A DNA stretch of 64,000 bases, from assembly GCF_026008515.1 (NCBI RefSeq), contig NZ_BQYM01000009.1:1-64000 (forward strand), in the 5' to 3' direction. Shown in pieces: positions 52,201 to 60,600 of the stretch. This stretch comes from Hoyosella levis (lineage in GTDB: Bacteria > Actinomycetota > Actinomycetes > Mycobacteriales > Mycobacteriaceae). Both the position numbers and the translations under genes were made by a program. Every line of letters starts with the position of its first letter. The stretch's first letter is position 1. Below the pieces are notes generated by a model. That model was not told the origin of the DNA and searched no databases. It was given only the letters and a program-made list of their open reading frames with translations.

Positions 52201-55200
52201 GGACCAGCACGTCCTCGTGCTCGTGGTGCATCACATCGCGGCCGACGGCGAATCGCTCGCGCCGCTCGCCCGGGACGTGATGATCGCCTACTCGGCGCGA
52301 GCCGAGGACCATGAGCCTGGCTGGGCGCCGCTCGCCGTGCAGTACTCGGACTTCGCCGCGTGGCAGCGCGACCTGCTCGGCTCCGAGGATGACCCGGCGT
52401 CGCTGCTCTCGACCCAGATCGCCTATTGGCGGAACGCCCTTGCCGATCTGCCAGAGCTCATCGAGCTGCCCACTGATCGGCCGCGGCCGGCCGTGATGTC
52501 CCAGCGCGGCGCCCAGCACGAGCTCGCGCTCGACGCCGGGGTGCAGCAGCGCATCATGGATCTCGCGCGGCGCCACAACGCGACCCCCTTCATGGTGGTC
52601 CATGCGGCGCTCGCGATCCTGTTGTCGCGGTTGTCGGGGGAGAACGATGTCCCCATTGGCACCCCGGTGGCCGGGCGTGGCGATCGCAAGCTCGACGATG
52701 TCGTTGGCATGTTCGTCAACACCCTGGTGCTGCGCACCGGGATCGCTTCCGGGCAGCGCTTCGTGGACTTCCTCGACGAGGTGCGGCGTTCGGATATCGC
52801 GGCGTTCACCCACACCGACGTGCCGTTCGAGAAGCTCGTCGAGGTACTCGACCCGGCACGCTCGCGGGCGCACGCGCCACTGTTCCAGGTGCTGTTCACC
52901 TTCCAGAACAGCAGCTCGCCCCGATTCGAGCTGCCCGGCCTCGCGGTGGAGCCGATCGAGGTGGATACCCACACCGTGAAGTTCGACCTCGATATCGCGG
53001 TGATCCAGCAGTGGACGGACAATACTGTCCCGGCCGGCATGCGCGTGGTGCTCACCTACGCCACCGATCTGTTCGACGAATCGACCGTCGCGACCTTCGG
53101 CAAGCGCTTCGCCACGCTCCTCGGCAGCGTGCTCGAAGCGCCCGAGGCAGCCATCCGGGACCAGCAATGGATCGACGGCCCCGAGCTCGATCAGGTAGCC
53201 CTGCTGGGCCGCGGTGACCGGCGTGCCACGATGGAGACCAGCCCGCTGTACCGGTTCCGCCAGCAGTGCGCCGCGACGCCTGACGCGGCTGCTGTCCGGG
53301 ACGGCAGCCTCGTCCTTACCTACCGGCAGCTTGATGCGGCCTCCACCCAGCTCGGCGAGGACCTTGCCCGCGCGGGAGCGGGGCCCGACGATGTGGTCGC
53401 GCTGCTGCTGCCCCGCTCGGCCCAATGGGTCGTCGCGATGCTCGCCGCATGGAAGGCCGGCGCCGCCTACGCGCCGATCGACCCGAAGTTCCCCGAGGAC
53501 CGTCTCGCCGCCGTGCTCGCCGACACCCAGGCCATTGCCGCTGTCGTCGCGGGCCCGGGCCCCTGGGACACCCTGATGGGCGAGGGCACCGTGTTCACGC
53601 TCGACGAGCGCATCGCCGAGGCGCCACCGGTCGCGACGGCGTTGCCCGACCGCTGGACCGAGCCCGGATCCGGCGACCGCATCGGCTATGTCATCTCCAC
53701 CTCCGGCTCCACCGGCAGGCCCAAGCCCACGCTGGTGCCGATGGCGGGAATCGCCAACACCCTCGAGTGGTACCTCGACGCCTCCGCGGTGGACGCCGGC
53801 GATGGCGTGCTGATCGCCTCCTCGCCCGGCTTCGACCTGACCCAGAAGAACGTATGGGTGGCACTCTCCGCGGGAGCGACGATCGTCATCGCGGAGGACC
53901 CGTTCGATCCGGCGAGCATCCTGCAATCCATCACGGGCACGTCCGTGGCGCTGGCAAACATGTCGCCAAGCGCGTTCGAGGCGCTGGCCGAGACCGACGA
54001 CACCGGAGTGCTCGCGAGCCTGCGGGCCGTCTTCCTCGGCGGCGAGGCGATCCGCCGCAAGCCGATCGCCGCGCTGCTTGATGCAGGCGTGCGCTTCTAC
54101 AACAGCTATGGGCCCACCGAGGCTTCCGATGTCGTCTCCTGGGCACCAGTGGAGCCCGGGGCGGACGGGAACACCCCGATCGGCGAGCCCATCCCCAATA
54201 TCGACCTGTTCGTCCTTGACCGCGACTTGCGGCCCGTGCCCCACGGCGTCGGTGGCGAGCTGTACGTGGCTGGCATCGGCGTGGGACGCGGCTACGGCGG
54301 CATGACCGCCCTCACCGCGCAACGCTTCGTCGCGAGCCCGTTCGGCAAGCCGGGCGCGCGCATGTACCGCACCGGCGACCTCGCCCGGTGGACCACCGAA
54401 GGGCAGCTCGAGTACCTCGGCCGCACCGACTTCCAGGTGAAGCTGCGGGGCTTCCGCATCGAGCTCGGCGAGATCGAGGCCGTGCTGGCCGCGGACCCAG
54501 CCATCAGCAAGGCGCACGTGCAGGTCTATCACGATGCCCATGCAGGTGATCAGCTCGTCGCCTACCTCGTGCCGGTCGCGGGAGCCACCCCCGACCGCGA
54601 TGAGCTGCGCGCCCACGCGTCCTCGAGCCTGCCGCCGTACATGGTCCCGGCCGCGATCGAGCTGCTGTCCGAGTTCCCCCTCACCGCCAGCGGCAAGCTC
54701 GACCGCAGGCGGCTGCCCGCGCCGCAGCTCGCCACTGCTATCACCGGCGAGCATGTAGCCCCCACCAACCCGGTGGAGGAAGCGATCGCAGCCGTGTTCG
54801 CCGAGGTCCTCGGCGTGCCGGAGGTGTCGATCACCGCGCCGTTCTTCGACCTCGGCGGCAACTCGCTGGGCGGGATGAAAGCCGTTGCCCGCATCAGCAG
54901 CAGCCTCGGCGTGAAGGTGCGCCTCCATGACCTGTTCGACGCGCCCACCGTCGCCGAGCTCGCGGTCCGTGTCGAGCACGCCCATGCCCTGCGGGGCGGC
55001 GGGCAGCCGCTCGCCCCGGTCGATCCGCGACCCGAGCACATCCCGCTGTCCCTCGCGCAGCAACGCATGTGGCTGATCAACCGGTTCGATCCCGCATCAT
55101 CGGCGTACAACATGCCGTTGATCGTGCGGCTCTCCGGCGACCTGGATGCCAAGGCGCTCGCGCAGGCCGTCGCGGATGTCATCGAGCGCCACGAGACCCT

Positions 55201-57675: not shown

Positions 57676-60600
57676 ATGACTTCACCGACAGCATCCCGCC
57701 AGCAGCTCTTGCCTCAGTTGATGGCGGCGGCGGTGGAGGTGGATCCGTCGGGTCCGGCGCTGGTGCTGGGTGATCGGCAGGTGTCGTATGTGAATCTGGA
57801 CAAGCGGTCGTCGCGGCTGGCGCGGTTGCTGGTGTCGCGGGGGGTGGGCCCGGAGTCGCGGGTGGTGGTGGCGCTGCCGCGGTCGGTGGAGTCGGTGGTG
57901 TCGGTGTGGGGCGTGGCGAAGGCGGGCGGGGCGTTCGTGCCGGTGGATCCGTCGGCGCCGGGCGAGCGGGTCGCTCATATCGTGGAGGACTCGGGCGCGG
58001 TGGTGGGCATCACCACGGCCGGGCATGTGGGGGCGCTGCCGGGGTCGGTGGAGTGGGTGGTGCTCGATGACGAGGGGGTCAGGGCGGAGCTGAAGGGGCT
58101 TTCCCCGGCGCCGGTGTCGTACCTGGACCGGCTGGGGGTGGTGCGCCCGGAGAGCGTGGCGTATGTGATCTTCACCTCGGGGTCGACGGGGCGGCCGAAG
58201 GGGGTGGAGGTCACGCATGCGGGGCTGGCGGCGCTGGCGGCGGAGCAGCGGGAGCGGTTCGGGCTGCGGGCGGGGGCGCGAGTGCTGCATTTCGCTTCGC
58301 CGGTCTTCGATGCGTCGGTGCTGGAGCTGTTGATGATGGTGCCGGTGGGGGCGGTGATGGTGATCGCTCCGGCGGGGATGTATGGCGGCGAGGAGCTGGC
58401 GGGGTATTTGCGCGAGCAGGGGGTGACGCATGCGTTCGTCACCCCGGCGGCGCTGGCGACGGTGGATCCGGGGGGCCTGGATGCGCTGGAGACGGTGGTG
58501 GTGGGCGGGGAGGCGTGCCCGCCGGAGCTGGTGGAGCAGTGGGCGCGGGGGCGCCGGATGGTCAATGCGTATGGGCCGACCGAGGCGACGGTGGTCACGA
58601 CGATGGCGGGGCCGCTGGTGGCGGGGGAGCCGGTGTCGATCGGTTCGCCGGTGCGGGGGTTCACGGTGATGGTGCTGGATGCGCGGTTGCGGCCGGTGCC
58701 GGAGGGCGTGGCGGGGGAGCTGTATATCGCGGGGCCGGGCGTGGCGCGGGGGTACGCGGGCCGGTGGGGGTTGTCGGCGGAGCGTTTCGTGGCGTGCCCG
58801 TTCGCGGGGGCGGGGGCGCGGATGTATCGGTCGGGCGATGTGGTGCGCTGGGTGGGTACTGGCCGGGGGCGGGAGCTGGTGTACCAGGGGCGGTCGGATT
58901 TCCAGGTGAAGGTGCGTGGGTACCGGATCGAGCCGGGGGAGATCGATGCGGTGGTGCGGGGCCTGGAGGGGGTGGGGTTCGCGTTGACGGTGGCGCGGGA
59001 GAACCCTGCGGGCGAGAGCATGCTGGTGACGTATGTGCAGGCGGCGGGGGGTGGTGTGCTCGAGGGGGAGCGGGTGCGCGAGCAGGCGGCGGGGGTGCTG
59101 CCGTCGTACATGGTGCCGTCGGTGGTGGTGGTGATCGATGAGGTGCCGTTGACGGCGCAGGGGAAGGTGGATCGGCGGGCGTTGCCGTTGCCTGAGCTGG
59201 GGGCGGAGCGGGAGTTCGTGGCGCCGGGCAGTGCGTCGGAGGAGGTGGTGGCGTCGATCTTCGCGGGTGTGCTGGGTGTGGAGCGGGTGAGTGTGGGGGA
59301 TTCGTTCTTCGAGCTGGGCGGCAACTCCCTGATGGGCACGCAGGTGATCGCGCGCGCGAACGAGGCGCTCGGCGCGGACCTGATCGTGCGGGAGCTGTTC
59401 GAGCATCCCACCGTGGCGAAGCTCGCTGCCCGCATCGACGAGGCCGGCGCAAGCAGCGCGGCTGTTCCGCTGGTGGCACAGGAACGGCCCGACCATGTCC
59501 CGGTCTCGCTCGCCCAGCGGCGCCTGTGGTTCATCAACCAGTACGACGTCACGTCCTCGGCTTACAACATCCCGCTCGTGCTCACCCTCACCGGCGAGCT
59601 CGACCGCTACGCGCTGCGCGACGCGTTCCGCGACGTGGTGGAACGCCATGAATCCCTGCGCACCGTCTTTCCCTCCTACCGGGACCAGCCCGCGCAGGTG
59701 ATCCTGCCGATGCACGAGGTCACCGCTGGCCTGGAGTTCATCGACACCACCCCGCAGGCAGTCACGGGGCTCGCCGCCGAGTTCGCCGGACGTGGCTTCG
59801 ACGTCACGCGCGACGAACCGGTCCGGGCAGCACTGTTCCGCCTCAGCGAGACCGAGCATGTGCTCGCGGTCGTCATGCACCACATCGTCGCCGACGGATT
59901 CTCGCTCTCGCCGCTCGCCACCGACGTCATGGTCGCGTATTCGGCCCGGGCCAACGGCGACGAGCCCGCCTGGGAACCGCTGGAGGTGCAGTACGCGGAC
60001 TTCGCGATCTGGCAGCGCGAGGTGCTCGGCGACGAGACCGACCCCGAATCGATCGCCTACCAGCAGGAGCAGTACTGGAAGCGCCAGCTCGCCGATGTGC
60101 CCGAGGTCCTTGACCTGCCCACTGACCGGCCCCGGCCAGCCGCGCAATCCCTGCGCGGCGCTACCCGCTTCCACGAGATCCCGGCGGACCTGTACGCGCG
60201 GCTCGGCCATATCGCTGCGCGGCATGGAGCCACGCCCTTCATGGTGATCCACAGCGCGCTCGCGGTGCTGCTCGCCAAGCTCTCCGGCACCACCGACATC
60301 ACGATCGGCACGCCGGTGGCGGGCCGTGGTGCCCGCGCCCTCGATCCACTCGTCGGCATGTTCGTCAATACCCTCGTGCTGCGCACCTCCGTGGAGGGCA
60401 CGAGCACGTTCGGTGGACTGCTCGAGCACGCCCGCGAGGTTGATCTCGCCGCGCTGTCCAATGCAGATGTGCCCTTCGAGCGGCTCGTCGAACTGCTCGA
60501 CCTCGAGCGATCCACCGCGCACGCCCCACTGTTCCAGGTGCTGCTGACGTTCCAGAACCAGCAGCGGCCCCGGTTCGAGCTCGGTGGGCTCACCATCGAG

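What the first reader, a model, noticed from the sequence alone, without database searches (positions are those of the whole stretch)
55000..59330. A split NRPS module: C domain plus dead A domain on one protein, working A-T at the start of the next
NRPS1 ends C6-A*, where A* lacks the ATP-binding, substrate-binding and catalytic-lysine blocks and is not followed by a carrier. NRPS2 begins with an intact A-T and has no C domain. The simplest reading is that C6 of NRPS1 works with A6-T6 of NRPS2 in trans. A* and A6 share otherwise unusual strings ([15 protein letters not shown]; then PxSxxDRxGxxR before the ATP-loop position), so they are related. A* has kept high GC at third codon positions over about 340 codons, which hints it is still translated usefully, perhaps as a docking platform, although long open frames are common in high-GC DNA. 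I know of no standard name for a terminal inactive A domain used this way.
Basis: partly seen in the sequence, partly recalled or inferred. Interest (0 to 1): 0.78.

Follow-up and report, generated by a model that had tools for sequence, protein, structure and literature searches.

The report
Split peptide-synthetase module with dead domain
A giant peptide-making enzyme ends in a dead but conserved remnant of an amino-acid-loading domain, while the working copy starts the next enzyme; related species share this layout, so the remnant probably keeps a structural role at the junction between the two enzymes.

Summary
NRPS1 (window 37259-57490) ends C6-A*; NRPS2 (57676 to contig base 72798) starts A6-T6 without a C domain. 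A* lacks the ATP loop, A4, A5, the A7 aspartate and everything from A8 on, and has no carrier. It is not decay confined to one genome: a full-length A*, cut at the same A7/A8 hinge and followed 111-185 nt later by an A-first gene, was found in six genomes of Lolliginicoccus and Hoyosella, with dN/dS 0.13-0.30 (flanking C6 0.03-0.16). Trees make A* an old duplicate of A6. The species closest by RpoB (98.6%) carries at the same fusA-tuf locus a single 11190-residue NRPS with C6-A6-T6 in one chain and no A*, which supports C6 and A6-T6 being one module; that locus looks replaced (53% identity), so it is a natural fused homologue, not vertical loss. A second NRPS in three of these genomes also ends in C-A*. 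Best reading: a split module in which A* survives as an Acore-like structural partner of C6; docking of NRPS2 by A* is plausible but untested. Truncated A domains that assist trans loading are already reported (kutzneride), so this is a new variant of a known kind.

The parts
37259..57490 (+). NRPS1, 6743 aa, C-A-T-E-C-A-T-C-A-T-C-A-T-C-A-T-C-A*; lies directly downstream of fusA and tuf
55007..56290 (+). C6, intact condensation domain (HHIIGDG)
56291..56461 (+). C6-A* linker; SIV(Q/R)GG is conserved in the six A*-bearing proteins and absent from the fused homologue in G003
56462..57487 (+). A*: truncated, catalytically dead Acore remnant (342 aa); most conserved patches are the A1 helix ([15 protein letters not shown]) and KAQLK..P.P.SFYDR
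57488..57490 (+). NRPS1 stop codon (TAG), just before where motif A8 would lie
57491..57675 (+). 185-nt intergenic stretch (185, 111, 120, 116, 111 nt in G001, G002, G067, G051, G026); from 57588 on it is 76% identical to G001
57676..64000 (+). NRPS2, start of a 5040-aa A-T-C-A-T-E-C-A-T-E-C-A-T-TE ORF that ends at contig base 72798, outside the window
57754..59208 (+). A6, intact adenylation domain (ATP loop, A5, A8, A10 lysine present), with no C domain before it
59206..59421 (+). T6, carrier domain (GGNSL)

Best explanation
This is one NRPS module split between two proteins inside the module, at the C|A joint. C6 at the end of NRPS1 condenses the peptide carried by T5 with the amino acid that A6 activates and loads on T6 at the start of NRPS2. 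A* is an old duplicate of A6 that lost catalysis, its substrate pocket and its mobile Asub lobe, but is kept as a folded Acore-like partner of C6: it covers the face of C6 against which an Acore normally packs (the C-Acore platform) and forms the C-terminal surface that NRPS2 can meet in trans. Shown here: the anatomy, the conservation, the purifying selection, the common origin with A6, and the fused homologue. Inferred: the platform role. Guess: that A* itself contacts A6-T6.
For: (1) Full-length A* in 3 of 4 genomes of the window's genus and 3 of 3 of a second genus; a gene starting with A lies 111-185 nt downstream in all six (in G001 and G002 the contig ends inside A6, and the continuation is on other contigs). 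(2) A* dN/dS 0.26 (bootstrap 0.15-0.44), 0.30 (0.22-0.42), 0.13 (0.08-0.19), 0.18 (0.15-0.31) in four pairs. (3) A* is monophyletic (100/100) and groups with A6 (99/97). (4) The six end at the same A7/A8 hinge, the border between the better constrained Acore and the rotating Asub-T part (PMC8097286, passages). (5) G003: one 11190-aa protein with C6-A6-T6 in cis and no A*. (6) A* modelled alone by AlphaFold2: pLDDT 80, pTM 0.85, residues 21-100 about 90; the 50 Foldseek hits listed are structures that hold A domains, delta-Asub constructs among them. (7) A homologous C-A* end on a second NRPS in three genomes.
Against: dN/dS of A* is 1.3 to 8 times that of C6 and its C-terminal 150 residues are poorly conserved, so part may be drifting. 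The split loci were found by searching with A*, so 'A* in 6 of 6 split loci' is partly circular: a split locus without A* would have been missed. No contact with NRPS2 was shown; the C6-A* model has low global confidence (pLDDT 69.6, pTM 0.49) and does not superpose on solved C-A pairs (rmsd about 19 over about 900 columns). If A* occupies the Acore seat on C6, A6 cannot sit there as in a normal module, so the geometry of T6 delivery is unexplained. The A* models were built on alignments that include normal A domains, which biases them to that fold. NRPS3 has an A* but no neighbouring A-T gene. G003's NRPS is only 53% identical to NRPS1 although its RpoB is 98.6% identical, and its second half differs from NRPS2 (no E after T7, ends in E without TE), so it is a homologue at the locus, not a strict ortholog.
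Confidence: 0.62

Rival explanations
1. A* is a dedicated docking domain: a catalytically dead A domain whose surface recognises A6 (its own paralogue) or T6 and specifies which downstream NRPS follows.
For: Neither terminus has room for an added docking segment; A* is the only element after C6; A* and A6 are paralogues; two A*-ending NRPSs exist in one genome. [quoted passage not shown]
Against: No binding or complex model; the fused homologue keeps the A1 and SxxDR patches in A6 without any A* to bind, so those patches are not specific to an A*-A6 contact; NRPS3 has no recognised partner beside it.
Confidence: 0.3
2. A* is a slowly decaying leftover of the duplication that split the gene, kept only because a stop nearer to C6 would damage C6 folding (a cap or solubility tail with no further role).
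For: dN/dS higher than in C6 in all four pairs; poor conservation of the last 150 residues.
Against: Six species keep the same end point at the A7/A8 hinge; an internal patch far from the linker (KAQLK..SFYDR) is near invariant in A*; a second paralogue keeps the same layout.
Confidence: 0.25
3. The gene break is a sequencing or assembly error, or a recent inactivation.
For: A truncated A domain in a Verrucomicrobia contig was put down to a possible indel error (PMC8692599, one passage).
Against: Six assemblies of different species show the same layout; the blocks after A7 are missing, not frameshifted; purifying selection.
Confidence: 0.02
4. NRPS1 and NRPS2 belong to different products, and C6-A* is a terminal release or capping unit of NRPS1.
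For: NRPS3 also ends in C-A* with no adjacent A-first gene; NRPS1 has no thioesterase at its end.
Against: NRPS2 follows at 111-185 nt in all six genomes; the fused homologue joins C6 to A6-T6 in one chain; NRPS2 begins without a starter domain and ends in a thioesterase.
Confidence: 0.08

Closest known systems
Truncated, non-functional A* domains of kutzneride and glidonin NRPSs (PMC10587159, passages; the kutzneride work itself not seen)
   Same: A catalytically dead part of an A domain is kept inside an NRPS; for kutzneride it is reported as critical for a trans-acting A domain (KtzN).
   Different: Glidonin A* is the mirror image: Asub kept, Acore lost, followed by its own T and TE in one chain. 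Here the Acore side is kept, Asub is lost, and A* is the protein's end with no T.
Trans-complemented inactive A domains (albicidin, cystobactamid, ramoplanin, enduracidin; naphthyridinomycin unclear; review PMC8949500 section 4.1, read in full)
   Same: A dead A domain in the main line; the amino acid is supplied by an A-T pair on another protein.
   Different: There the helper is a stand-alone A-T. Here the A-T pair is the head of a multi-module NRPS encoded next door, and the dead A is terminal, without T and Asub.
SyrE/SyrB1 split module of syringomycin (same section)
   Same: A and T on a different protein from C of the same module.
   Different: SyrE has no A in that module and keeps C-T-TE; SyrC shuttles the residue. 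Here A* remains; no shuttle was looked for.
X domain of glycopeptide antibiotic NRPSs (PMC8949500, passage)
   Same: A dead member of a catalytic NRPS domain family kept as a recruitment platform (there for P450 enzymes).
   Different: X is C-derived with a shown partner; A* is A-derived and its partner is unproven.
Truncated dA in fungal SidD/Nps6 (PMC10192304, passages)
   Same: A truncated, dead A domain that persists; T loaded by another A.
   Different: dA lacks about 290 N-terminal residues and belongs to module 2 with its own T; A* lacks the C-terminal lobe and is terminal.
COM, PAX and beta-hairpin docking domains at NRPS subunit ends (review PMC9113145, passages)
   Same: They join megasynthase subunits in order.
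   Different: They are short terminal regions; here, by length, neither end has one and the break is inside a module.
Bleomycin BlmIV/BlmIII break with a defective A on one side (recalled, no call)
   Same: Break between a C-type domain and an A, with a dead A at the joint.
   Different: As recalled, there the dead A is on the downstream protein and keeps its carrier.

Membership tests
Split NRPS module (C on one protein, A-T of the same module on the next) | Upstream protein ends with C and no carrier after it | tested here: met
   Pfam and home-made profiles: C6, then A*, then stop
Split NRPS module (C on one protein, A-T of the same module on the next) | Downstream protein begins with A-T and no C | tested here: met
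   NRPS2 A[27-511] T[511-582]; 4 residues at most before the ATG
Split NRPS module (C on one protein, A-T of the same module on the next) | A homologue with the two halves in one chain | tested here: met
   G003 11190 aa, C6-A6-T6 at the same fusA-tuf locus; locus diverged (53%), so homologue, not strict ortholog
Split NRPS module (C on one protein, A-T of the same module on the next) | C uses the T of the other protein as acceptor | not testable with these tools
   needs reconstitution
Trans-complemented inactive A domain (albicidin type) | A domain in the main line lacks catalytic motifs | tested here: met
   A3, A4, A5, A7 Asp, A8-A10 lost
Trans-complemented inactive A domain (albicidin type) | Complementing A-T is a stand-alone protein | tested here: not met
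   A6-T6 is the head of a 5040-aa NRPS
Kutzneride/glidonin-type truncated A* | A domain truncated and catalytically dead | tested here: met
   motif loss and truncation; no activity was measured
Kutzneride/glidonin-type truncated A* | Asub kept, Acore lost (as described for glidonin) | tested here: not met
   A* keeps the A1, A2, A6 and A7 regions and ends before A8
Kutzneride/glidonin-type truncated A* | A* needed for the trans-acting A domain (reported for kutzneride) | not testable with these tools
   needs deletion and loading assays
COM / beta-hairpin / helical docking-domain pair | Added segment at the C-terminus of the donor and the N-terminus of the acceptor | tested here: not met
   by length only: A* ends at A7; NRPS2 has about 10 residues before the A-domain helix; no docking profile was run
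Dead-domain recruitment platform (X-domain-like) | Catalytically dead homologue of an NRPS domain, conserved under selection | tested here: met
Dead-domain recruitment platform (X-domain-like) | Binds a partner protein needed in the pathway | not testable with these tools
   no complex prediction available; no binding data

The most novel reading that the evidence does not exclude
A* is a new type of NRPS inter-subunit domain: a pseudo-adenylation core at the end of a chain, used as an intramodular docking platform for a paralogous, working A domain at the start of the next chain. Since two upstream synthetases of the window's genome (NRPS1 and NRPS3) both end in C-A*, A* and A*3 could sort which downstream line each one feeds, or both could feed NRPS2. 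Against the second part: the genome also holds an A-T-C protein (C5:182612-186151) that is a candidate partner for NRPS3, and two relatives hold fragments of a further NRPS.
Probability: 0.15. Interest if true: 0.75.

Novelty: new variant of a known kind. Interest (0 to 1): 0.52.

Why it matters
If right, this is a natural, evolutionarily stable cut inside an NRPS module, placed at the C|A joint and capped by a dead Acore, with a natural uncut homologue in a sister species. It makes the question of what C needs from its A neighbour (platform, stability, or acceptor gating) directly testable, and it would give engineers a cut site that nature uses, distinct from subunit ends that rely on short docking segments.

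Tried and rejected
Assembly error: rejected, six assemblies agree. Plain pseudogene: rejected by dN/dS and stop-free conservation. Wide distribution: profile A2 against samples of 397 order and 396 phylum genomes gave no further full-length A*, but only five candidates per genome were scored there, so a weak A* in an NRPS-rich genome could be missed. The other full-coverage hit, G254, continues into A8, A10 and T, so it is not truncated; two Rhodococcus loci have all the A motifs sought. Vertical loss of A* in G003: rejected as the simple story because its RpoB groups with G000 (91/95) yet its NRPS is 53% identical where G001's is 91%. A*3 as an independent invention: rejected, A* and A*3 form one clade (100/100); A* without A*3 was a clade in only 16% of 200 bootstrap trees. 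The fused A6 of G003 leans weakly towards A* in both trees (87/71; 83/69 read unrooted), so which copy of the duplicated A6 kept the old place is open. G002 conflicts: the genus label and the A* tree (99/96) put it with G000 and G001, RpoB puts it with G026, G051, G067 (83/89). NRPS4 as an A-first gene: not settled, both ends of its contigs fall in repeats; G000 shows no ortholog (best 48%). 'NRPS2 is the only A-first gene of G000', which I first held, is wrong: an A-T-C ORF lies at C5:182612-186151, and 4 of 28 A6 matches in G000 were not printed. Joint folding of the two termini was not tried: a joined chain is not an unchanged translation, which the tool requires. VIA-align library not available. 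C-A interface mapping not possible: no coordinate file in the script box. Literature: ten searches, ten papers opened (one section read, otherwise passages); nothing that I saw describes a terminal Acore remnant facing an A-first NRPS. Not opened: the seven papers listed, PMC12283262, PMC5811625, PMC7570522, PMC7242659, PMC8262917. Most subscription journals are not in that library.
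Full report
What is there. NRPS1 (37259-57490, 6743 aa) lies directly downstream of fusA and tuf (Pfam). Profiles built from these NRPSs' own domains read it as C-A-T-E-C-A-T-C-A-T-C-A-T-C-A-T-C-A*. NRPS2 starts at 57676 and runs to contig base 72798 (5040 aa): A-T-C-A-T-E-C-A-T-E-C-A-T and a thioesterase (PF00975, 119 bits). A* (56462-57487) scores 66 bits to Pfam AMP-binding in two stretches, with no C-terminal A subdomain and no carrier. 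A1 and A6 are kept; A3, A4, A5 and the A7 aspartate are lost; the protein stops before A8. A6 of NRPS2 has all of them and T6 follows.

Is it an accident? No. In the genus search (4 genomes examined) A* is full-length in G000, G001 (72%) and G002 (47%); G003 has none. G001 and G002 are recorded as Lolliginicoccus lacisalsi and Hoyosella rhizosphaerae (contig names and lengths). In a family sample of 151 genomes the next best matches to the first 148 residues were three genomes of another genus, G026, G051 and G067, at 55-58%; 3 of 3 genomes of that genus carry the full A*. That this genus is Hoyosella is my inference: RpoB groups G002 with it (83/89), and both genera stand in Hoyosellaceae. 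No further A* appeared in samples of 397 order and 396 phylum genomes, with five candidates scored per genome. In all six the next gene begins with the same A-domain helix, 185, 185, 111, 120, 116 and 111 nt after the stop (G000, G001, G002, G067, G051, G026), with room for only 4-20 residues before its ATG. The fusA-tuf neighbourhood was seen directly in the window, G003 and G051.

Selection. Nei-Gojobori dN/dS for A* with its linker is 0.26 (G067/G051), 0.13 (G067/G026), 0.30 (G000/G001), 0.18 (G000/G002); for C6 0.03, 0.07, 0.16, 0.14; for A6 0.07 and 0.095 in the two pairs with data. dS of A* is high in G067/G026 and G000/G002 (2.0 and 2.9), so those ratios are rough. All four bootstrap intervals exclude 1 and Fisher tests give p from 3e-8 to 1e-50. 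Constraint is patchy: the best window of 40, just after the start of the A1 helix, is 78% identical between G000 and G051, and KAQLK..P.P.SFYDR is near invariant, while later windows fall to 25-30%. A* is relaxed relative to C6 but not neutral.

Origin. A* is one clade (100/100) inside a group with split and fused A6 (99/97); with A*3 added, A*, A*3 and A6 together are still set apart from the 21 other A domains (95/94). So A* is a duplicate of A6. The duplication predates the split of the lineages that carry it, unless the cluster moved between them. The position of G002 differs between RpoB and A*, so some exchange is possible.

The fused homologue. G003 has, downstream of fusA and tuf, one 11190-aa NRPS colinear with NRPS1 (52.6% over NRPS1 residues 22-6740). 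Where NRPS1 has C6-A*, it has C6-A6-T6 with all A motifs, and no A*. C6 of NRPS1 matches the C at that place best (63%, against 50% for the next two). This is what a joined form of the module would look like and is the best evidence that C6 works with A6-T6. Its second half differs from NRPS2 (no E after T7, an E at the end and no TE). G003 is nevertheless the closest relative of G000 by RpoB (98.6%; G001 97.9%; tree 91/95), while G001's NRPS1 is 91% identical to G000's. The locus in G003 has probably been replaced by another allele, and it says nothing about loss of A* by descent.

A second C-A*. Another NRPS of the window's genome (C1:332392-352212, minus strand, open frame 6607 aa) ends in C followed by a truncated A. 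Its orthologs in G001 and G002 do the same. These A*3 domains form one clade with A* (100/100), lack the same blocks and keep NLDRRSSRLAR and YDRP. A*3 with upstream linker has dN/dS 0.44 and 0.38, weaker constraint than A*. At E 1e-36 A*3 was found in 3 of 201 family genomes sampled (whether G026, G051 and G067 were in that sample is not shown). No A-first gene lies in the stretch fetched beside it; the NRPS-type neighbour there is a lone C-like protein. G000 holds another A-first ORF, A-T-C, at C5:182612-186151, and G001 and G002 hold fragments of one more related NRPS whose start is not assembled. Which of these, if any, follows NRPS3 is unknown.

Structure. A* alone folds to pLDDT 80, pTM 0.85; Foldseek's 50 listed hits are structures that hold A domains, TM 0.64-0.78 of the query. 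C6-A* together reached only pTM 0.49, and its domain arrangement is not reliable. Both alignments contained normal A domains, which favours that fold.

Mechanism. In solved NRPSs the C-A linker contributes to a stable catalytic platform, Acore is well constrained while Asub and T rotate, and recombination in nature tends to keep the C-A and Asub-T joints intact (PMC8097286, passages). The cut here respects both joints: NRPS1 keeps C plus an Acore-like body, NRPS2 keeps Acore-Asub-T. The most economical reading is that A* supplies the platform partner that C6 needs while A6-T6 does the chemistry from the next protein. Whether A* also recognises NRPS2 is open; nothing here measures it.

Place among known things. 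Dead A domains served in trans and split modules are known (PMC8949500 section 4.1, read in full), as are dead domains used as platforms (X domain) and truncated fungal A domains. [quoted passage not shown] The present A* is the mirror image of the glidonin one (Acore side kept, Asub lost, end of the chain). That precedent makes a helper role for A* more credible and the idea less new; I lowered interest slightly (0.55 to 0.52, novel case 0.8 to 0.75) and left the odds of the main reading unchanged. I file it as a new variant of the split NRPS module.

Noticed in passing
G000:C1:332392-352212 (L013, L014): A second giant NRPS in the same genome also ends in a C domain plus truncated dead A domain, with orthologs in G001 and G002 and no A-first NRPS gene in the stretch fetched beside it.
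   Followed up: partly
L088 (G002 C8), L087 (G001 C12): Fragments of a further NRPS (T-C-A-T-C-A-T-E-C; in G002 preceded by the end of an A) related to NRPS2; in G002 the DNA at both ends is almost identical to the matching ends of the NRPS2 piece (L089), which hints at gene conversion and would explain the contig breaks. G000 shows no ortholog.
   Followed up: partly
G003:C2:501906-535478 (L039, L040): A single 11190-aa NRPS at the fusA-tuf locus of the species closest to the window's by RpoB, only 53% identical to NRPS1: probable replacement of a whole assembly line at one locus.
   Followed up: partly
G000:C5:182612-186151 (L142): An A-T-C ORF without an upstream C domain; its A is only distantly related to A6. 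Possible partner of another NRPS.
   Followed up: no
window 33237-37259: A giant NRPS gene lies directly downstream of the housekeeping pair fusA-tuf in the window, G003 and G051.
   Followed up: no
window 39152-39190, 53696-53730, 61333-61370 (approximate): The first and fifth A domains of NRPS1 and the second of NRPS2 form a distinct group with PKP instead of PKG after the ATP loop ([12 protein letters not shown]) and FDLTQKN at motif A4.
   Followed up: no
window 57588-57675: Intergenic stretch upstream of NRPS2 is conserved with G001 (CCTGGTTAGCATGTAAAG), perhaps a promoter or operator of NRPS2.
   Followed up: no
L009 10651-15230: Downstream of NRPS2: two similar glycosyltransferase-like ORFs on the + strand and an ABC-transporter-like set (two permeases, one ATPase) on the - strand (named by eye).
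   Followed up: no
window 37-9491: ABC/YrbE-like and mce-like ORFs (named by eye) followed by rpoB and rpoC.
   Followed up: no
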